This document shows positions 31,373-44,046 of a stretch of 64,000 nt of DNA, piece by piece. Below the pieces are notes generated by a model that saw only the letters and a program-made list of their open reading frames with translations, was not told where the DNA came from and did no database searches. The first letter of the stretch is position 1, and each line of letters opens with the position of its first letter. The DNA is taken from assembly GCF_000469545.1 (NCBI RefSeq), contig NZ_KI273067.1, positions 1 to 64,000 of the forward strand, given 5' to 3'. This stretch comes from Mitsuokella sp. oral taxon 131 str. W9106 (GTDB taxonomy: Bacteria > Bacillota > Negativicutes > Selenomonadales > Selenomonadaceae). Made by a program: the position numbers and the translations under genes.

Positions 31373-33445
31373 ATGAAATCGTATCCAAGCACAAATTTGC
31401 GAAACGTCGCCGTCATTGGACATGGCAAGACGGGCAAGACGAGCTTGCTCGACGCTTGCCTTTTTGATGCAGGCGGAGCAAAGCGTCTCGGCAGCGTCGA
31501 AGACAAGACGAGCGCGATTGACCATGAGGCGGAAGAACTGCGCCGCGGCATGACGGTCAGCGCGAAGCTCGTCGCCTGCGAATGGCAGGATTACAAGATC
31601 AATTTCCTTGATACGCCGGGCTATCCTGACTTTGTCGGCGACGTGAAGGGAGCGCTCGCCGCAGCAGACAGCGCACTCATCGTCATTTCCGCGCCGGCAG
31701 GCATCGAGATGGAGACAGAGCGCGTTTGGCAGTATGCGGAGGAGGCCTTGCTGCCGCGTGCGTTCTTCGTCAATAAGATGGATCGCGAACACGCGGACTT
31801 TGACCGCGTCGTCGAGGAGTTGCGCGTCCGATTCGGCACGGGCGTCGTTCCCGTGCAGATCCCGATCGGCAAGGAGGCGGCGTTCCAGGGCGTCGTCGAT
31901 CTCCTGACCCTTCGCATGCGCGTCATGACGCACGACGATGAGCCGCAGGTGGGCGAAGTCCCTGCGTACATCCGGGCGGAGGTTGAGGCAGGACGGCAGA
32001 AGCTCATCGAGTCGATTGCGGAGTTCCATAACGAGCTTCTCGAAAAGTACATCGAAGGCGCGGAAATCACGGAAGTCGAGGCGGCTGCTGCCCTTATCGA
32101 GGGGATTCAGGCAGGCAAGATATTCCCCGTATTCTGCGGCTCGGCAAAGGCGAACATCGGCATCCGAAAGCTGATGAACAGCATCGTCGAATACCTGCCG
32201 ACACCGTATTTCAAGGTCGCGATCGGCACGGATCCCGAAACGGGGGACATCAAGGAGCGGCGCACGGAGGACGCGTTCTCGGCGCAGTCGTTCAAGACCA
32301 TCGTCGATCCCTTCGTCGGACATCTTAGCTTTTTGCGCGTTCTTTCGGGTGAGATGCGCGGCGATGCTTCGTACTGCCATCCGAACGGTACGGATACGGT
32401 GCGCGTCGGCACGCTCTTCACGATGCGCGGCAAGCAGCAGGAAAGCCTGCCAAGCGCCGCGGCGGGCGATATCGTCGTCACGGCAAAGCTGCCGTCCGTT
32501 CGGACCGGCGACTCGCTCTGCGACAAGGCGGACGCCATCCAGTACGAGGCAATCGAGACGCCTGCGCCCATGCTCGAAATGGCGGCGACCGCAGAAAAGA
32601 AGGGCGAAGAGGACAAGGTCTTTTCCGCGCTTTACAAGCAGCAGGAGGAAGACCCGGCCATTGCCGTCACGAAAAATCCCGAGACGCATGAGACGCTCGT
32701 CTCCGGCATCGGCGAAGTGCACCTTGAGATACTCGCCGAGAAGCTCGCGCGCAAGTTCTCCGTGACGCTCAAGCTCGGCGAGCCGAAGGTCGCCTACCGC
32801 GAGACGATACGAAAGAGCGTCAAGGTGCAGGGCAAGCACAAAAAGCAGAGCGGCGGCCACGGCCAGTACGGCGACGTTTGGCTTGAGCTCAGCCCGCAGC
32901 CGGCGGGCGAAGGCAATGCATTCCAGGAGACGATCTTCGGCGGCAGCGTGCCGCGCCAGTACATCCCCGCCGTCGAAAAAGGCGTCGCAGAGACATTCGC
33001 TGCAGGCATCGTCGCAGGCTATCCCGTGACCGACGTCAAGGTCAATCTCTACGACGGCTCGTACCATACCGTCGACTCGTCCGAGGCGGCGTTCAAGGCG
33101 GCGACCGCCATCGCGCTCAAGAAAGGCGTCATGGAGGCATCGCCCGTCCTCCTCGAGCCGATCGATACCGTGACGGTTCGGACTCCCGAGTACTACATGG
33201 GCGACGTCGTTGGCAAGCTCAACGCGAAGCGGGCGCGCATCCTCGGCATCGAGCATGTTGGCAGGGACATGAGCAGGATACAGGCGGAGGTGCCCGTCTC
33301 GGAGCTCTATCGCTTCGCGACCGACCTGCGCTCCCTCACGCAGGGACGCGGCACCTATGCACGGGCGTTCTCGCGCTACGAGCCGCTTGCGGATCCAGAG
33401 GCGAAAAAGATCATCGAAAGAAGGCGTTCCTCTAGGGAGAACTGA
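31373..33445 (+). CDS. Elongation factor G-like GTPase (EF-G paralogue)
   Basis: A 690-residue translational GTPase of the EF-G2 type. The P-loop is GHGKTGKTSLLD, not the GHIDAGKTT of standard EF-G. Switch II is DTPGYPDF and the NKxD motif is NKMDRE. Domain IV has GGHGQYGDVWLELSPQ and FGGSVPRQYIPAVEKG, and domain V TVRTPEYYMGDVVGKLNAKR. The paralogue family is widespread in Firmicutes; its role in elongation, recycling or stress is not settled. ATG 31373 follows GGGAGGG. The main EF-G gene is presumably elsewhere. Confidence 0.9.
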   Translation: MKSYPSTNLRNVAVIGHGKTGKTSLLDACLFDAGGAKRLGSVEDKTSAIDHEAEELRRGMTVSAKLVACEWQDYKINFLDTPGYPDFVGDVKGALAAADSALIVISAPAGIEMETERVWQYAEEALLPRAFFVNKMDREHADFDRVVEELRVRFGTGVVPVQIPIGKEAAFQGVVDLLTLRMRVMTHDDEPQVGEVPAYIRAEVEAGRQKLIESIAEFHNELLEKYIEGAEITEVEAAAALIEGIQAGKIFPVFCGSAKANIGIRKLMNSIVEYLPTPYFKVAIGTDPETGDIKERRTEDAFSAQSFKTIVDPFVGHLSFLRVLSGEMRGDASYCHPNGTDTVRVGTLFTMRGKQQESLPSAAAGDIVVTAKLPSVRTGDSLCDKADAIQYEAIETPAPMLEMAATAEKKGEEDKVFSALYKQQEEDPAIAVTKNPETHETLVSGIGEVHLEILAEKLARKFSVTLKLGEPKVAYRETIRKSVKVQGKHKKQSGGHGQYGDVWLELSPQPAGEGNAFQETIFGGSVPRQYIPAVEKGVAETFAAGIVAGYPVTDVKVNLYDGSYHTVDSSEAAFKAATAIALKKGVMEASPVLLEPIDTVTVRTPEYYMGDVVGKLNAKRARILGIEHVGRDMSRIQAEVPVSELYRFATDLRSLTQGRGTYARAFSRYEPLADPEAKKIIERRRSSREN

Positions 33446-33506
33446 TTCGGCGACGGCGCATCATGCTTTGCGGGCAGCGGAATACGTGTGCCATTCGCAT
33501 GGGGAG

Positions 33507-33548
33507 GGAGTCCATTCGTCACATAGGACGATGGGACTCTTTCTTTTC
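33507..33548 (+). terminator. Terminator after the EF-G paralogue
   Basis: GGAGTCCATTCGTC (33507-33520) pairs imperfectly with GACGATGGGACTC (33527-33539), followed by TTTCTTTT. Confidence 0.75.
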
Positions 33549-33621
33549 GTGTGCCTATTTGTCTGCCCGCATCCGATTCGTGAATCGTGGCAAGAAAAAT
33601 CTGCCCATCCAATCTTTTATC

Positions 33622-33650
33622 TTGCTTTCATGTTCTATTAGCAGTAAAAT
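33622..33650 (+). promoter_or_regulatory. Promoter of the autotransporter gene
   Basis: TTGCTT (33622-33627) and TAAAAT (33645-33650) have a 17-base spacer. The start codon is 49 bases downstream of the -10 box. Confidence 0.6.
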
Positions 33651-33698
33651 AATCTTATGCTAGGTTAATACATTAAAAAATATGGGGAGAGGGGTATC

Positions 33699-36600
33699 AT
33701 GCGCAAAGGAACCAAGAGATATCAGAAATTGGCCGTGTGCATTGCGCTGGCATTGTCCACGGGGGGGGGGACATTCTTACTAAATCCGACCCATGCGCTG
33801 GCTGCGGATGTGACGGGCGGAGATGTGACGGTGGATGCGGCGCATCCTCTTCCCGCTACGTTTTCATTGCCAGCAGGAAATGGAGCGGATATACCCAATA
33901 CAGGCGATAACCGAAATGTGGTTGGCAACAAACTGACCATACGTGTGCGAACCGGATACGTATGGCATTATGGCGGGTATACGGCCGGTAGCGGCAACGC
34001 GACAGGCAACATACTCACGCTAAGTGGGGAATTGAATTCAGGCCTTGCTGATCTTTATTTTGTCGGGGGAGGATCAGAGCACGGAAATGCGACCGGCAAT
34101 ACGGTCATACTGGAAGGCCCGGTAACGGGGAATTATCTATACCTATATGGCGGAAGAAGCAATCTTCCGGCAGGAGATGCCACGACGGGAAACACGCTGC
34201 GCGTAAAGGGCGGGATGACGAGCGTAATCCAAATAAGAAATTTCGAGAAGATGGAGTATGATCTCGATTCGAGTGTTGCCAATGGCGCTGGGATGTTATA
34301 CGTATCGTTTGGGCTGCCGTCCATTGATTGGAACAAGGTGGGGGTAAACGGGTTGAGCAAGTGGGCCGAAAGCCTGCCATCCACGATCAACACGCCAAAC
34401 GTCGTACTGTACAACACTGGGTCATCGAATATTTCACTTCGCAATTACTCGCCACGCTTGATTCAAGCGATGAACCACTACGAATTCGGAATACGCGGAA
34501 ACGGCACGCTCGCGGGGACAACGATGGCAGGGGCAACGCAAATTACCCTGTCAGGCAATAAATACGAATACGCAACGACACCGACAGTCGTCGGCGCTAC
34601 TGCGCATGGCGGATATTCTCTCTATGGCAATACGACGAACCACAATACGATTACGATAAGCCCGGGCGCGTATTCCGACGTCCGCGCAGGCTATACCGAT
34701 GCGGAAAAAGGTGGTTCGGAGTACAATACGCTGAAGTTTGAACCTGGCACGTCCTCGACAAATGCCTATGCGGGATTCTCCCGCGCCACGCAGGCCTCGG
34801 ATGCGGACCGAAAGGCGGATGCCTCGGCGAAGGCAAATGCAAAGAAGAACGTGGCGGAGGTATCGGGCGGTGCGATTACGAATCTCTACGGCGGCGCACT
34901 GACGGGCGCGGCGGCATCGGGGGATGCGACAGGGAACGCAGTCAAGGTATCGGGCGGCGCGGTCACGAATCTCTACGGCGGCGCACTGACGGACGCGGCG
35001 GCGACGGGAAATGCGACGGGCAACACCGTCACCATCACGGGCGGCACGCTGAACGGCGATGTCTACGGCGGCCATACGGCAGGCACGGGCAAGACGACGG
35101 GCAACACGGTCAACCTCGGCGACGAGGATGGGGCGTATTCCGCTGCGACTGCCGTAAACGGCACGCTCTACGGCGGCAGTGACAGCGCGGACGTCGCGGG
35201 CAATGTCCTGAACGTCAACGCCAACGCGCAGGCGAAGAACATCCGGAACTTCGAGACGATCCGCTTCAACTTCAAGCCCACGCAGAACGCGGCAAGCCCC
35301 TTGCTCAGGCTCACGGACACGGCCGGCACGGCGCTGGACTGGCGCAGCATCAAGACGACGGGAAATGCGATCGGGGATGGCCGCATCGTCACGCTGCTTG
35401 AAAATACGACGGCAGGCGGGCTCACGATCGGGTCGTACACCGGGGCGAAAGAAGTCGCGTCCACGGGGACGAGCGAAATCTCCATCGATACCGACACCCA
35501 TGCGGCGAGCGCAAAGAAGATCCTGTTCCGCGGCTACACGTTCCGCGATGCCAGCAAGACCGCTGGCGCATCCGATGCCACGACGCCCGCGTCGGACGTA
35601 TGGGCCGGGCGTTCCGCGATCGGCAACACGACGGCGGGGAGCCATCTCACCGTCACGGGCGGCACGTTCCGCGATGCCTATGGCGGATGGACGGCCGGCA
35701 CGACGACGACGGCCGCCGACAAATTCGGCAGCCGGGGGAACAGCGTCACGCTGAAGGACACGGATGCGGCGCATCCGACGGAAGTCCGCAGCCTCTACGG
35801 CGGACGCTCCGAGACGCCCGCGGGAAGCGCGACGGGCAACAAGGCCATCGTCGCGGGCGGCACGGTCACGGGCACGATCTACGGCGGCGCGCTGACGGAC
35901 GCGGCGGCGACGGGAAGTGCGACGGGCAACACCGTCACCATCACGGGCGGCAGGATCGGCACGCCCCTTCAGGCAGCAGATGTCTACGGCGGCTATACGG
36001 CAGGCTCTGGAAAGACGACGGGGAACACCGTCACATTAGGCGACGGCACGCATGGCGTCGGCACGATCTACGGTACGCTCTACGGCGGCAGTGACAGCGC
36101 GGACGTCACGGGCAATACGCTCGTCGTCAAGGCGAATGCCGGAGCTGCGGTCAAGGGCATCCAAAATTTTGAGACCATCCGGTTCGACATGGACACGAGC
36201 GCGAGCACGACGACGCCGCTTCTGAATGTGACGGGCACGATGCCGCTTGCGGGACTCGATTGGGCGAAGGTCGACGTGGACGTAAAGCACCTTTCGCCCG
36301 TGCTCAGGCCCTATGAGGCATACCATGCGCATATCCTGGAAGGGGCAGGCGGCATCTCGTTCATGCAGGGCTCGCGCAATACGTACGTCCCAATCGGTGC
36401 CAAGGACAAGCGGAATGGAAACTACGAGTTCGTCCTCGACACGGATACGCACAGCGTGAACGCCACGCGCTACGTCGACCTCACGGGCTGCCAGTACCAA
36501 AACAACAAGGCGGCGAAATTCACGGCGGCGGACGGCACGAAGCCCGAGGCATGGGCAGGGCGCAGCATCGCCGGCAACACCGTGCAGCATAACGTGCTTT

Positions 36601-39470
36601 CCGTCGAGGGCGGCACGCTCGTAAAGGCGGTGGGCGGCATCGCCGAGAACACGAAACACGACGGCGCAGGCGTCCTTCTGACAACGGGGGATGCGAACGA
36701 CAACACGGTGACGGTAAAGGCAGGCGCGGCCGTCCATGATGCCTATGGCGCGGACGTGCGCACGAAGGGAGGCTCGGCGGAAGGGAACGCCGCCGAGGTC
36801 ACGGGCAGCACGGTCGCGGGGAATGTCTACGGCGGCGCGCTCACGGCAGCAGGCGCGACGGGCGCGGCAAAGGAGAACGTCGTGCGCCTGAAGGGCGGCA
36901 CAGTCACGGGCACGGTATACGGCGGTGCGCTGACGGACGCGGCGGCTGTGGGCGCAGCGACGGGCAATGTGGTGAATATCCTAGGCGGACAGGCGCAGGA
37001 CATTTATGCGGGCTTCACGGCGGGCACGGGCAGGACAACGGGCAACATCGTCAATATCGGCGACGGCGCGGCTCCTCTTGCTGCCGGCACATCCGTTTCC
37101 GGCACGATCTACGGCGGAAATGGAACGGACGTCGAAGGCAATACGCTGAACATCAAGACGAAGGGCTTGACGGCAGGCAGTGTCGCAAACTTCGAGCATA
37201 TCACATTTATGCCGAACGCGCAGATGGCGGACGGAGACACCGTGCTTACGCTCACGCGGAACACGGTGATTCCCATCGGATCGCTCTGCGTACCGACCGA
37301 GCACATGGAGAAATGGCTTGGAAACGCTGTGGAAAAGGGCGCACATCTCATTCGCATGACCGGTGCTTCGCTTACGGTAAACGGGTATGGCACAGCGGCG
37401 GACACAAAGCGTGCGGGCGATGTCGAATACCAGCTCCGGACGGATGACGATGCGGCTGTGACGACGGGAACGCTCGATATTTCCGCTTATCGCTGGCGCA
37501 ATGCGAACATCACCGCAAGCACTGCGGCAGCCGATGCCTACGCGGGCAAGAGCCGCATGGCGGAAACGGAGTCGAATCATCTTTCCATTGCTGCCGGCGG
37601 GGCGGTCACGAACGCGATAGCGGGCGACACGCAGTCCGCTATGGGCGATGCAAAGGGGAACGTGCTGACGGTAACGGACGGCGCGCTGGCGCACGGCATC
37701 GGCGGCAAGGCGATTGGCGGCGCGGCCGTGAAAAATGCCGTCGTCGTCAATGGCGGGGCAATCGGCACGGCATCGGCGCAAGGCGCGCTCTACGGCGCCA
37801 TGACACAGGGAGAAGCGCATGAAAACCGCGTCGCAGCCGAAGGCGGCACGGTGCATGCAGATCTCTGCGGCGCGCGCGCCGCAGGCAGCGCGACAAAGAA
37901 TACGGTCACGGTCGCTTCTTCCATGCAGGGGCGTGTCACGGGGGCAGAGTCTGTTCATGCAGACGCCACGGAGAACACGGTCTCCATCAAGGCCGCCGTG
38001 ACGGGCGATGTCTTTGGCGGCAGGGCTGCGCAGGGCAGCGCCTCGCAGAATGCGGTCACCGTGGAAGGCGCGTCCGTCACGGGCGATGTGACGGGCGGTG
38101 CGGGCGCGACGACAACCGGCAATGCCATTCACTTGCGGGGGGCTGCGGTGACGGGTGACGTCATCGGCGGCACGGCGGGCGCAGCGGGCAACACGCTTGC
38201 CATCCATTTCGACCCCGTGCGCACATCGTCTGTCCACGACTTCCGCAATGTGGAAAACCTGCACTTCTACCTTGGCGGCAGGGTGAACCGCGAAAGCCCG
38301 ACCATGCTCCAGCTTGGCGTCAGACAGAAGGACATGCGCGGCATGCATCTCGGCGTCGGCGTCAATGGTGCTGCGCCCGCCCTGCAAATGGGCGATGTCA
38401 TCAGCCTTATGAAAGCCGCACCGGGCGGCACGCTCACGATGGACGCGCTTCCCCAAAACCACGTCGAGGGGATGCAGGGCGTCTCGCTGCTCTATGGGTT
38501 TGACCTGCAGAAGCGCGGGCTTGACGAGCTCGTCGCGACCGTCACCAAGGCGGCCATAAGCGAGCGGACGAAGTCCCTCGTCGAGACGCGCGCCGGCATG
38601 AGCGACTTTTTGAACCGCGGCGCGGATCTCTTGACGTGGGCGGGCGTCCAGTCCGCAGGCAAGGAAGGCGGGACGAAGCGGTACGAGCTTTGGGCTGCCA
38701 TGCAAAACGGCTCGATGCGCGCAAGAACCGGCTCGTATGTCGACAGCAACGGCATGAACCTTGCCCTTGGATGGGCACGCAGGGATCCGCGCGGCAAGGG
38801 CAAGACGACCTTCAGTCCCTTTGTCGAGTACGGCAAGGGGAAGTATACCTCTCATTTGGACGACGGCACGACGGGAAGCGGCGACCTCAGCTACTTCGGC
38901 GCGGGCGTGCTCGGAACGTACGAACGCCCGGATGGACTTTGGGCGGATGCGTCCGTCCATGCGGGCATGGCGCGGAGCGACTACCGCGGACAGCTCTACG
39001 GCAATCGGAATACGACGTACGATATGGACAGCGCGTACTATGCGGCGCATCTCGGCGTCGGCAAGAACTTCCGCTGCGGAGCAGGCAGTACCGTCGGAGC
39101 GTACCTGCGCTACCTCTATTCCAACCAGCAGGGCGGAGAAGCGACGCTGAGCTCCGGCGAGACGTACGACTTCGGCAGCGTGCATTCGAACCGCGTGCGC
39201 CTCGGCGCGACATACGCCCATATGGGCAAGCGGGGCGGCTCCGTGCGGGCAGGGCTTGCCTGGGAGTATGAGCTCAGCGGCAGTGCGCGTGCAAGCTACG
39301 CGGGCTACGACACGCCGAGTCCCAGCCTGCGCGGCGGCAGCGCGATGCTCGAGCTCGGCTATCGCTTCGCACCGAAGGACGGCCGCGTTCGCTACGACTT
39401 CCAAGTGACGGGCTGGCAAGGCAGGCGCGAAGGGGTGTCCGGCAGCGTGCAGGTGAACTGGGCGTTTTAA
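33699..39470 (+). CDS. Giant autotransporter with beta-barrel domain and poly-G tract in the signal region
   Basis: A 1923-residue outer-membrane protein. Residues 1-36 form a signal peptide with basic start and ALA cleavage sites, and its TGGG codons are encoded by ten consecutive G. The passenger (to about 1610) is rich in Gly, Thr and Asn and contains large repeats marked by the hinge NFE(T/K/H)I-x-F at about residues 185, 516, 822 and 1163, with a weaker one near 1513. A linker precedes a roughly 270-residue barrel (about 1655-1923) ending NWAF, with the expected terminal aromatic. The first kilobase is AT-richer than the rest. Ligand or adhesin role is unknown. ATG 33699 follows GGGGAGAGGGG. 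Confidence 0.93.
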   Translation: MRKGTKRYQKLAVCIALALSTGGGTFLLNPTHALAADVTGGDVTVDAAHPLPATFSLPAGNGADIPNTGDNRNVVGNKLTIRVRTGYVWHYGGYTAGSGNATGNILTLSGELNSGLADLYFVGGGSEHGNATGNTVILEGPVTGNYLYLYGGRSNLPAGDATTGNTLRVKGGMTSVIQIRNFEKMEYDLDSSVANGAGMLYVSFGLPSIDWNKVGVNGLSKWAESLPSTINTPNVVLYNTGSSNISLRNYSPRLIQAMNHYEFGIRGNGTLAGTTMAGATQITLSGNKYEYATTPTVVGATAHGGYSLYGNTTNHNTITISPGAYSDVRAGYTDAEKGGSEYNTLKFEPGTSSTNAYAGFSRATQASDADRKADASAKANAKKNVAEVSGGAITNLYGGALTGAAASGDATGNAVKVSGGAVTNLYGGALTDAAATGNATGNTVTITGGTLNGDVYGGHTAGTGKTTGNTVNLGDEDGAYSAATAVNGTLYGGSDSADVAGNVLNVNANAQAKNIRNFETIRFNFKPTQNAASPLLRLTDTAGTALDWRSIKTTGNAIGDGRIVTLLENTTAGGLTIGSYTGAKEVASTGTSEISIDTDTHAASAKKILFRGYTFRDASKTAGASDATTPASDVWAGRSAIGNTTAGSHLTVTGGTFRDAYGGWTAGTTTTAADKFGSRGNSVTLKDTDAAHPTEVRSLYGGRSETPAGSATGNKAIVAGGTVTGTIYGGALTDAAATGSATGNTVTITGGRIGTPLQAADVYGGYTAGSGKTTGNTVTLGDGTHGVGTIYGTLYGGSDSADVTGNTLVVKANAGAAVKGIQNFETIRFDMDTSASTTTPLLNVTGTMPLAGLDWAKVDVDVKHLSPVLRPYEAYHAHILEGAGGISFMQGSRNTYVPIGAKDKRNGNYEFVLDTDTHSVNATRYVDLTGCQYQNNKAAKFTAADGTKPEAWAGRSIAGNTVQHNVLSVEGGTLVKAVGGIAENTKHDGAGVLLTTGDANDNTVTVKAGAAVHDAYGADVRTKGGSAEGNAAEVTGSTVAGNVYGGALTAAGATGAAKENVVRLKGGTVTGTVYGGALTDAAAVGAATGNVVNILGGQAQDIYAGFTAGTGRTTGNIVNIGDGAAPLAAGTSVSGTIYGGNGTDVEGNTLNIKTKGLTAGSVANFEHITFMPNAQMADGDTVLTLTRNTVIPIGSLCVPTEHMEKWLGNAVEKGAHLIRMTGASLTVNGYGTAADTKRAGDVEYQLRTDDDAAVTTGTLDISAYRWRNANITASTAAADAYAGKSRMAETESNHLSIAAGGAVTNAIAGDTQSAMGDAKGNVLTVTDGALAHGIGGKAIGGAAVKNAVVVNGGAIGTASAQGALYGAMTQGEAHENRVAAEGGTVHADLCGARAAGSATKNTVTVASSMQGRVTGAESVHADATENTVSIKAAVTGDVFGGRAAQGSASQNAVTVEGASVTGDVTGGAGATTTGNAIHLRGAAVTGDVIGGTAGAAGNTLAIHFDPVRTSSVHDFRNVENLHFYLGGRVNRESPTMLQLGVRQKDMRGMHLGVGVNGAAPALQMGDVISLMKAAPGGTLTMDALPQNHVEGMQGVSLLYGFDLQKRGLDELVATVTKAAISERTKSLVETRAGMSDFLNRGADLLTWAGVQSAGKEGGTKRYELWAAMQNGSMRARTGSYVDSNGMNLALGWARRDPRGKGKTTFSPFVEYGKGKYTSHLDDGTTGSGDLSYFGAGVLGTYERPDGLWADASVHAGMARSDYRGQLYGNRNTTYDMDSAYYAAHLGVGKNFRCGAGSTVGAYLRYLYSNQQGGEATLSSGETYDFGSVHSNRVRLGATYAHMGKRGGSVRAGLAWEYELSGSARASYAGYDTPSPSLRGGSAMLELGYRFAPKDGRVRYDFQVTGWQGRREGVSGSVQVNWAF
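33761..33770 (+). repeat. Poly-G tract (10 G) in autotransporter signal-peptide codons
   Basis: Ten consecutive G fall within codons 21-24. With ten the frame is open to the full barrel; gain or loss of one or two G would end translation early. This is the form of a slipped-strand contingency locus. Confidence 0.9.
34950..37140 (+). repeat. DNA-level repeats in the autotransporter passenger
   Basis: A nearly identical stretch of about 65 bases occurs at 34980-35045 and 35886-35951, exactly 906 bases (302 codons) apart. A third, diverged copy begins near 36924, 1038 bases (346 codons) further. A CTCTACGGCGGCAGTGACAG block at 35166 recurs at 36078. All offsets are multiples of three, so recombination between copies would keep the frame. 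Confidence 0.85.
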
Positions 39471-39490
39471 GAAAACCTGCCTGTCCCGCA

Positions 39491-39519
39491 TTGACAAGCC
39501 ATGTCCCGTTTGCTACACT
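39491..39519 (+). promoter_or_regulatory. Promoter of glyQS
   Basis: TTGACA (39491-39496) and TACACT (39514-39519) have a 17-base spacer. Confidence 0.8.
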
Positions 39520-39527
39520 GTAATGGC

Positions 39528-39716
39528 AATGAAGAAGAGGAGTACCCCCAATCCCAGCGAGATGCGACGGTGAAAGGCATCGACGGGGCGAAGGCACTTT
39601 GGAGCGCGAACCGCATAGATTGAGGTGGGTCTTCGGATCAATCAGGGTGGAACCGCGGTACTTGGCAATCGAGTCTCGTCCCTGTGGCGTTGCGTCGCAG
39701 GGGCGGGGCTTTTTCT
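39528..39716 (+). promoter_or_regulatory. T-box: Glycine T-box leader with terminator
   Basis: The T-box sequence AGGGTGGAACCGCGG lies at 39644-39658. It is followed by a terminator hairpin (CGTCCCTG... with CGCAGGGGCGGGG, about 39677-39709) and TTTTT. The Stem I region is short. By comparison with the remembered Geobacillus glyQS leader, the specifier GGC (glycine) is likely at 39593-39595 in CGAAGGCACTTTGGAGC; another GGC at 39576-39578 is a less likely alternative. Uncharged tRNA-Gly should favour the antiterminator and switch on glyQS. Confidence 0.92.
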
Positions 39717-39769
39717 ATGCGGATAGGAGCCGCTTTTCCTGCGGCAGTTGGAGTAGAGGAGTTGTTCCC

Positions 39770-40648
39770 ATGAAATTTCAGGAAATCATCTTTGCCCTGC
39801 AAGCATTTTGGTCGGAGCAGGGCTGCATTCTCGCAGAGCCTTACGACGTCGAAAAGGGCGCAGGCACGATGAACCCCATGACGTTTCTGCGCGTGCTCGG
39901 CCCAGAGCCATGGCATGTCGCTTACGTCGAGCCATCGCGCCGTCCCGCCGACGGACGCTACGGCGATAACCCGAATCGCCTGTACCAGCACCATCAGTTC
40001 CAAGTCATCATGAAGCCGTCGCCCGACAACATCCAGGAGCTTTACCTAGAGAGCCTGGAGCGTCTCGGCATCGATCCAAGGCAGCACGACATCCGCTTTG
40101 TCGAGGACAACTGGGAGTCGCCGACGCTCGGCGCGTGGGGACTCGGCTGGGAGGTCTGGCTCGACGGCATGGAGATCACGCAGTTTACGTATTTCCAGCA
40201 GGTCGGCAGTCAGGACATCCGCCCAGTCGCATCGGAGATCACGTACGGGCTCGAACGCCTCGCGATGTACATTCAGGGCGTCGAGAATGTCTACGATATC
40301 AAGTGGACGGACGACTGCACGTACGGCGATGTATTCCATCAGAACGAGTACGAGCAGTCGGCTTACGCATTCGACCTTTCCGACGAGGCACTGCTCTTTG
40401 ATCTTTTCGGCAAGTATGAAAAGGAAGCCGTCCGCATCATTGAGACGGGAAACGTTCATCCCGCATACGACTACGTGCTCAAATGCTCGCATACGTTCAA
40501 CCTGCTCGATGCGCGCGGCGCGATTTCCGTATCGCAGCGCGCCGCCTTCATCGGGCGCGTCAGGAGGCTCGCGCGTCTGTGCGCTGCGTGCTATTTGAAG
40601 CAGCGGGAGGAGCTTGGCTATCCGATGCTGCACAGGGGGGAGAAATGA
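39770..40648 (+). CDS. glyQ: Glycyl-tRNA synthetase alpha subunit
   Basis: A 292-residue catalytic subunit of the heterotetrameric bacterial GlyRS. Conserved strings include [41 protein letters not shown] and [23 protein letters not shown] 39770 follows AGAGGAG. Its TGA overlaps the glyS start (ATGA). Confidence 0.98.
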
Positions 40649-42834: not shown

Positions 42835-43000
42835 TAACATGAAATTCGTCGGATTGACGTAGATGTTTCGTCCGAACGAGGTGGAAAACTGGACGCAGCG
42901 TGGCGCTCGGTGGAGGATTTTCCACCGAAGTACGGGCAAAAAAGATGCGCCGGGCTGGCGTGGCTGAATGGATCCGTGCTTCCCTAAGGGGGGGAAAAAA
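42835..43000 (+). promoter_or_regulatory. Structured leader of argC
   Basis: Two mutually exclusive helices are possible: GGTGGAAAA (42880-42888) with TTTTCCACC (42918-42926), or CGGTGGA (42908-42914) with TCCACCG (42921-42927). A further CGCC/GGCG hairpin lies about 42945-42965. The SD of argC is part of a run of seven G (42988-42994). No T-box sequence or open small ORF of arginine codons is seen. Confidence 0.45.
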
Positions 43001-43005
43001 CGCGT

Positions 43006-44046
43006 ATGGATAGTAAAGTCAGCATCCTCGGTGCGACGGGCTACGCAGGTGCGGAGCTCATGCGCATCTTATACAACCATCCGAACGCGGAGGTCGTCCA
43101 CATCACGTCGGAGCGTCATGCGGGCGAGCATATCACCGCACTCTATCCGCATCTGCGCGGGCTCTATGATATGGAGCTTGAGAGCATGAGGGACATCGCG
43201 CGCATCGGTGCCGACAGCGACTTCGTCTTTATCGGCCTGCCGCATGGCCATGCGATGGAGGTTGGCAGGGCGCTTGCGGGCATGAGGACGCGCATCATCG
43301 ACCTCGGCGCGGACTACCGCTTTGATGATACGGATGTTTACGAGGCATGGTATCACGTCAGGCATACGCATGCCGATGCGCCGCGCACCTACGGCCTTTC
43401 GGAACTCTGCCGCGACGCGGTGCGCACGGCGAAGATCATCGGCAATGCGGGCTGCTTCACGACGGCGAGCATTTTGGCGCTCGCACCGCTCGCGAAGGAG
43501 CGTCTCGTCGACGTGAATACGATCCTCGTCGATGCGAAGTCGGGCGTTTCGGGCGCGGGACGCGGCGCGAAGACGGCGAATCACTTTCCTGAGCTTTACG
43601 ATAACTTCCGCGCCTACAACGTCGCGCACCATCGCCACACGCCGGAGATCGAGCAGGAGATCGGAAAGCTTGCGGGCGAGAAGGCGACGATCCAGTTCAC
43701 GCCGCATCTCGTGCCGATGTCGCGCGGCATCCTCGCGACGTGCTACGCGACGCTGAAAGAAGGCGTCACGGAAGATGACGTGGATGCGGCGTACGAAAAA
43801 ATCTATCGAAACGAGCCTTTCATCCGTCTGTTGGGACGCGGTGCGTACCCCTCGACGAAGGAGGTACGCGGCTCGAATTTCTGCGATATCGCATGGCATA
43901 TCGACGCGCGGACGCATCGCATCATCGTGCTGTCGGCGATCGATAACCTCGTCAAGGGCGCGGCAGGGCAGGCGGTGCAGAATTTCAACATCGCCTGCGG
44001 CTTTGACGAGACGACGGGGCTCATGATGACGCCGCTGTATCCATAA
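43006..44046 (+). CDS. argC: N-acetyl-gamma-glutamyl-phosphate reductase
   Basis: A 346-residue NADPH enzyme of arginine synthesis. It has the nucleotide loop LGATGYAGAELMR, the catalytic Cys in GNAGCFTTA and the SGVSGAGRGAK and HRHTPEIEQE motifs. It is the first gene of argCJBD. ATG 43006 follows AAGGGGGGG. Confidence 0.97.
   Translation: MDSKVSILGATGYAGAELMRILYNHPNAEVVHITSERHAGEHITALYPHLRGLYDMELESMRDIARIGADSDFVFIGLPHGHAMEVGRALAGMRTRIIDLGADYRFDDTDVYEAWYHVRHTHADAPRTYGLSELCRDAVRTAKIIGNAGCFTTASILALAPLAKERLVDVNTILVDAKSGVSGAGRGAKTANHFPELYDNFRAYNVAHHRHTPEIEQEIGKLAGEKATIQFTPHLVPMSRGILATCYATLKEGVTEDDVDAAYEKIYRNEPFIRLLGRGAYPSTKEVRGSNFCDIAWHIDARTHRIIVLSAIDNLVKGAAGQAVQNFNIACGFDETTGLMMTPLYP

What the first reader, a model, noticed from the sequence alone, without database searches (positions are those of the whole stretch)
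33761..33770. Poly-G contingency tract in an outer-membrane autotransporter
Ten G lie within codons 21-24 of a 1923-residue surface protein. Homopolymers of this length at the start of surface genes typically change length by slipped-strand mispairing. Only lengths of 1 modulo 3 (such as 10) keep the frame, so the protein could switch on and off.
Basis: partly seen in the sequence, partly recalled or inferred. Interest (0 to 1): 0.72.

Follow-up and report, generated by a model that had tools for sequence, protein, structure and literature searches.

The report
Poly-G switch in autotransporter signal peptide
A run of ten Gs sits inside the export signal of a giant surface protein of a double-membraned gut or mouth bacterium, and relatives carry the same kind of run at the same spot in both readable and broken frames, so the protein is very probably switched on and off at random by slips in copying the DNA.

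Summary
G10 lies at 33761-33770, at the third base of codon 21 and codons 22-24 of a 1923-codon ORF, and is in frame. The protein is a type Va autotransporter: signal peptide, repeat-rich passenger, and a C-terminal barrel that matches PF03797 (1e-15) and folds onto EspP, BrkA and NalP.

The length of the run is not by itself remarkable in this genome: the expected number is about two and two are seen. Its place is. In 5' ends of 90 related Selenomonadaceae autotransporters, G/C runs of 8 or more occur in 16/90 signal-peptide windows against 0/327 downstream windows. A Gly-Gly-Gly in the signal peptide is pure poly-G in 14/29 cases, against 1/55 in passengers.

Homologues at the same position are found in frame (S. 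infelix G10, one S. massiliensis G10) and out of frame (two other S. massiliensis G10, S. infelix G8, one G9 in a single-contig genome). ON/OFF translational phase variation is therefore well supported by comparison. It was not shown by length variation in this species, because no second strain or reads were available. The mechanism is known from Campylobacter, Neisseria and Helicobacter; I found no report of it in Negativicutes.

The parts
33761..33770 (+). poly-G tract, G10, last base of codon 21 and codons 22-24; present state in frame (ON)
33699..33806 (+). signal peptide MRKGTKRYQKLAVCIALALSTGGGTFLLNPTHALAA (cleavage after ALAA inferred by eye); the tract is at the end of its hydrophobic core
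   Evidence: translation; homologous signal peptides
33684..33694 (+). GGGGAGAGGGG, likely ribosome-binding site
   Evidence: sequence, (inference)
33807..38507 (+). passenger domain, rich in repeats of the GNxVxV ... YGG kind; includes an 87-bp tandem duplication at 34858-35031
38691..39377 (+). autotransporter beta-domain, PF03797, E = 1.2e-15 when the C-terminal 320 aa are scanned alone; barrel runs to 39467 (ends NWAF)
   Evidence: AlphaFold2 model pLDDT 86, pTM 0.83; PDB hits EspP, EstA, BrkA, AIDA-I, NalP
33699..39470 (+). whole autotransporter gene, 1923 aa

Best explanation
It is a phase-variable (contingency) autotransporter gene. During replication the G10 tract gains or loses single Gs by slipped-strand mispairing. 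Only lengths of 1 modulo 3 join the signal-peptide start to the passenger and barrel. Other lengths end translation within 3 or 45 codons, so nothing is exported. The population would then be a mixture of cells with and without the 1923-residue surface protein; in the genome as sequenced the gene is ON. Shown here: the tract, its place, the autotransporter domains, the strong enrichment of such tracts at this site in the family, and both frame states among homologues. Inferred: slippage in this strain, its rate, and the benefit (adhesion, immune or phage escape).
For: Tract and frame. Autotransporter. Signal-peptide windows with a G/C run of 8 or more: 16/90 versus 0/327 downstream windows, Fisher p = 7e-12 (genes not fully independent). 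Gly-Gly-Gly encoded as a G run of 8 or more: 14/29 in signal peptides versus 1/55 in passengers, p = 3e-7. In the window the GGG codon is only 16-17% of Gly codons, so three in a row have p of about 0.004. Out-of-frame signal peptides: 5/17 with a tract versus 1/73 without, p = 7e-4; the single exception has a G7 further down where the two frames overlap. Same-position homologues ON: S. infelix L113/L192 G10, S. massiliensis L203 G10, L160 G8, L161 G8, L162 G9. OFF: S. massiliensis L170 and L184 G10, S. infelix L238 G8, L165 G9 in a single-contig genome, L071 G7. Near-identical flanks with and without a tract: L248 G9 versus L247 GGCGGAGGG; S. massiliensis L170 G10 versus C. periodontii L106 GGGGGAGGGG. 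Campylobacter tracts of 8 or more Gs are proven switches (PMC6321876).
Against: No length variation of this very tract was seen: one genome of the species is held, and no reads. The genome encodes intact mutS and mutL, which lowers slippage of short tracts. The same genome keeps a G9 in the essential gene pyrH, at its conserved glycine motif, so a long G run alone does not prove switching here. Many homologues have the Gly motif with interrupted codons and are fixed ON. Homopolymer sequencing error could account for some OFF calls.
Confidence: 0.83

Rival explanations
1. Incidental homopolymer: the signal peptide needs two or three glycines at this place, the codons happen to be GGG, and the tract is effectively stable and always in frame.
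For: A GG or GGG motif is common here even without a tract (62 of 91 genes have GG in the signal-peptide region). Tract count in the genome is near the shuffled expectation. pyrH shows a stable-looking G9. mutS and mutL are intact.
Against: Gly triplets in passengers of the same genes are hardly ever pure G (1/55) while those in signal peptides are in 14/29. Out-of-frame states sit at these tracts.
Confidence: 0.12
2. Gene decay: frameshifts at the tract in relatives are ordinary pseudogene formation in a redundant adhesin family, with no reversible switching. This was argued for capC in Campylobacter (PMC7168839).
For: Some family members are broken inside the passenger without any G tract (L163, L235, L237).
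Against: Breaks fall on the few bases of tract in 5 of 17 tract genes, while passengers of several kilobases show only a handful among 100 genes. The OFF genes are otherwise open for up to 3459 codons (L170) with a complete barrel, which old pseudogenes would not be.
Confidence: 0.08
3. Sequencing or assembly artefact in a homopolymer.
For: G homopolymers of 8-12 are error-prone on several platforms; most genomes here are drafts or MAGs.
Against: An error changes the length by one but cannot make a ten-base tract out of GGCGGAGGG. The tract recurs at the same codons in many independently sequenced genomes and genera.
Confidence: 0.03
4. Programmed ribosomal or polymerase slippage on the G run, giving a fixed small share of frameshifted product instead of heritable switching.
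For: Long homopolymers can promote slippage in transcription or translation (general knowledge); nothing specific found.
Against: The present frame is already the productive one, and the alternative frames end at once, so no second product would be made.
Confidence: 0.03

Closest known systems
Campylobacter capA/capC/capD autotransporters with poly-G tracts
   Same: autotransporter genes carrying a homopolymeric G tract; in capD the tract lies in the coding sequence and its length decides the frame (PMC7168839)
   Different: capC tracts lie upstream of the start codon; Campylobacter is a phylum apart and carries dozens of such tracts, whereas this genome has four G runs of 9 or more and only this one in a surface gene
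Helicobacter pylori oipA (CT repeats in the signal-peptide codons)
   Same: repeat inside the signal-peptide sequence of an outer-membrane protein; length sets ON or OFF (PMC10564699)
   Different: dinucleotide repeat, not poly-G; not an autotransporter
Neisseria phase-variable autotransporters (NalP, AutB and others)
   Same: classical autotransporters switched by repeats in the 5' coding region; the NalP barrel is among the structural matches
   Different: poly-C or tetranucleotide repeats (recalled, not tested here); unrelated passenger
Veillonella parvula autotransporters
   Same: Negativicutes autotransporters that drive biofilm formation and autoaggregation (PMC7549365)
   Different: that paper does not mention phase variation, homopolymers or frameshifts

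Membership tests
Classical (type Va) autotransporter | Sec signal peptide at the N-terminus | tested here: met
   K/R-rich start, hydrophobic core, ALAA end; same layout in homologues. No dedicated signal-peptide predictor was run.
Classical (type Va) autotransporter | C-terminal 12-stranded beta-barrel of the PF03797 kind ending in an aromatic residue | tested here: met
   PF03797 E = 1.2e-15, AlphaFold2 barrel pLDDT 86, EspP/BrkA/NalP matches E 1e-13 to 1e-9, C-terminus NWAF
Classical (type Va) autotransporter | passenger on the same chain, exposed at the surface | tested here: inconclusive
   a passenger of about 1570 residues with repeats is on the same chain; surface exposure not testable
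Slipped-strand phase-variable (contingency) gene | homopolymer long enough to slip (poly-G of 8 or more) at the 5' end of the coding sequence | tested here: met
   G10 in codons 21-24; threshold from PMC6321876
Slipped-strand phase-variable (contingency) gene | off-frame lengths abolish the product | tested here: met
   other frames end after 3 and 45 codons
Slipped-strand phase-variable (contingency) gene | ON and OFF states exist among homologous genes | tested here: met
Slipped-strand phase-variable (contingency) gene | reversible length change within a clone or between strains of one species | not testable with these tools
   only one genome of the species; no reads

The most novel reading that the evidence does not exclude
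Selenomonadaceae, diderm Firmicutes not known for phase variation by DNA repeats, have evolved a family-wide system in which a Gly-Gly-Gly in autotransporter signal peptides is a recurrent cradle of poly-G switches. A parallel poly-C version lies in the N-region of another subfamily, and sister species carry poly-G in methyltransferase, glycosyltransferase and possibly mutL genes. Each cell would then display its own random set of giant adhesins, independently of the proteobacterial examples.
Probability: 0.6. Interest if true: 0.62.

Novelty: new member of a known kind. Interest (0 to 1): 0.5.

Why it matters
Phase variation by poly-G is textbook biology in Campylobacter, Neisseria and Moraxella. 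Here the same design appears in the outer-membrane Firmicutes of mouth, gut and rumen, in the gene family most likely to decide adhesion and coaggregation. It means that one genome per species misjudges which adhesins these bacteria display, and that annotated pseudogenes in this family may be switched-off genes. It is directly testable with existing isolates and read sets.

Tried and rejected
(1) A full-length scan of the 1923-aa protein against Pfam and NCBIfam gave nothing; the barrel alone gives PF03797 at 1e-15, so the negative came from the full-length scan, perhaps its composition or length filters. (2) The first barrel alignment was too diverse for the collection scan; a narrower one worked. 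(4) Within-species comparison: no second genome of the species was found, and the genome-contig scan leaves out near-identical records. (5) Synteny as a test: glyQ in both sister genomes is preceded by another gene, so an empty site could not be compared. (6) A promoter scan found nothing convincing upstream; Rfam found nothing in 33300-39800. (7) Considered and set aside: the G9 in pyrH, the tuf-rpsJ intergenic G10 and the fapR leader G9 as further switches of this genome, as there is no frame or homologue evidence for them. (8) Literature searches for phase variation with Selenomonas, Mitsuokella, Veillonella and Negativicutes brought no report of repeat-driven switching; the library lacks most subscription papers.

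Full report
What is there. The window holds one G or C run of 8 or more: G10 at 33761-33770. It lies in the ORF 33699-39470, ATG start, 1923 residues, as TCC ACG GGG GGG GGG ACA, residues S20-T21-G22-G23-G24-T25 of the signal peptide MRKGTKRYQKLAVCIALALSTGGGTFLLNPTHALAA. The frame through the tract is the long one, so the sequenced state is ON. After the tract the two other frames end after 3 and 45 codons.

Is it chance? By length alone, nearly. Dinucleotide shuffles of the window give a mean of 0.05 G10 per 64 kb, 4 of 100 shuffles with one or more. Over the 2.31-Mb genome that is about two, and the genome holds two G10 and two G9. The other three are a G9 at the conserved glycine motif of pyrH, a G10 between tuf and rpsJ, and a G9 in the leader of a fapR-like gene (gene names read from sequence, not scanned). 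So the tract is interesting for where it is, and that had to be tested on relatives.

The protein. No family was found for the full-length protein, but the C-terminal 320 residues match the autotransporter beta-domain PF03797 at 1.2e-15. They fold into a barrel behind an N-terminal helix (pLDDT 86, pTM 0.83) whose nearest solved structures are EspP, EstA, BrkA, AIDA-I and NalP. The passenger is built of GNxVxV/YGG-like repeats. The gene stands between an EF-G-like gene and glyQ. In the two sister genomes glyQ has a different upstream neighbour, and one of them has no member of this barrel family, so the gene is accessory.

Whose genome. The species was not identified.

The family survey. A barrel profile found members in 91 of 151 Selenomonadaceae genomes. 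I fetched 100 gene 5' ends and could place the signal peptide in 90, partly by hand. A G/C run of 8 or more falls in the first 120 bases in 16 of 90, against 0 of 327 equal windows further down the same genes (p = 7e-12) and 0 of 354 windows upstream (two G9 leader tracts, L204 and L222, fall just between the upstream windows). The genes are related, so the p-values overstate independence, but the tracts come from at least six genera. A Gly-Gly-Gly in the signal peptide is a pure G run of 8 or more in 14 of 29 cases, against 1 of 55 Gly-Gly-Gly in passengers, where GGC prevails (p = 3e-7). The glycine motif alone therefore does not explain the tract.

ON and OFF. In 12 of the 17 surveyed genes with a run of 7 or more, signal peptide and passenger are in one frame; in 5 they are not. 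Of 73 genes without such a run, one is out of frame, and that one has a G7 slightly downstream where the two frames overlap. At the very position of the window's tract, S. infelix L192 (G10) and S. massiliensis L203 (G10) are in frame, while S. massiliensis L170 and L184 (G10) and S. infelix L238 (G8) are not. In the single-contig genome G119, three neighbouring paralogues read G8 ON, G9 ON and G9 OFF. A further OFF gene is L071 with G7. The OFF genes stay open for hundreds to thousands of codons and end in intact barrels, as expected of switched-off rather than long-dead genes. Similar neighbours show the tract being gained or broken up: L248 G9 against L247 GGCGGAGGG, and L170 G10 against C. 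periodontii L106 GGGGGAGGGG.

A second version. Another subfamily has a C run just before the hydrophobic core: L239 C10, L080 C10 and L174 C11 in frame, L173 C9 out of frame; close relatives carry CCCCCATCAC in its place.

Mechanism. Slipped-strand mispairing changes the tract by single Gs, and only lengths of 1 modulo 3 give an exported protein. The steps shown by sequence are tract, frame consequence, domain content, enrichment at the site and both states among homologues. The steps inferred are slippage in this strain, its rate and the selective benefit. Intact mutS and mutL genes are present, which should lower the rate. In Campylobacter, tracts of eight or more Gs have been shown to switch expression, with 9 and 10 the commonest lengths (PMC6321876).

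Known or new. Poly-G-switched autotransporters are known in Campylobacter (capD in-frame tracts; capC upstream tracts, whose role is disputed: PMC7168839). Repeats inside signal-peptide codons are known in H. pylori oipA (PMC10564699). Autotransporters of Negativicutes are known to drive biofilm formation (PMC7549365), but that paper does not mention phase variation. I found no paper on repeat-driven switching in Selenomonas, Mitsuokella, Veillonella or Negativicutes in the open-access library. I file it as a new member of a known kind, in a lineage where it seems unreported.

Noticed in passing
L094, L093, L098, L097 (G002) and L088 (G001): Sister genomes carry G9-G12 tracts in genes for methyltransferases (PF13649, PF08484, PF05711) and an AraC-type regulator; by eye the two sides of the tract are in different frames in several of them, as in switched-off contingency genes.
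   Followed up: partly
L087 and L090 (G001): A methyltransferase (G10) and a family-1 glycosyltransferase (G10) with poly-G near the 5' end and an open frame.
   Followed up: partly
L100 / L258, G002 contig C65: mutL of a sister species has a G9 in its coding sequence (ETMGGGTSF), in frame; slippage there would switch off mismatch repair.
   Followed up: partly
G001 whole genome: A sister genome listed as 99% complete shows no mutS1 or mutL over the family cut-off, and has seven G runs of 9 or more.
   Followed up: partly
L239, L080, L174, L173: A second autotransporter subfamily has C9-C11 before the signal-peptide core; C9 is out of frame, the others in frame.
   Followed up: yes
L222 and L204: G9 tracts a little upstream of the start codon of two further autotransporters, possible promoter or leader switches.
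   Followed up: no
L102 and L103 (own genome C9:252538-252547 and C9:305886-305894): G10 between tuf and rpsJ and G9 just before the start of a fapR-like gene; role unknown.
   Followed up: no
window 42988-42994: G7 directly upstream of the argC start at 43006, probably only a ribosome-binding site.
   Followed up: no
L163, L235, L237: Some related autotransporters are broken inside the passenger without a G tract, by decay or sequencing error.
   Followed up: partly
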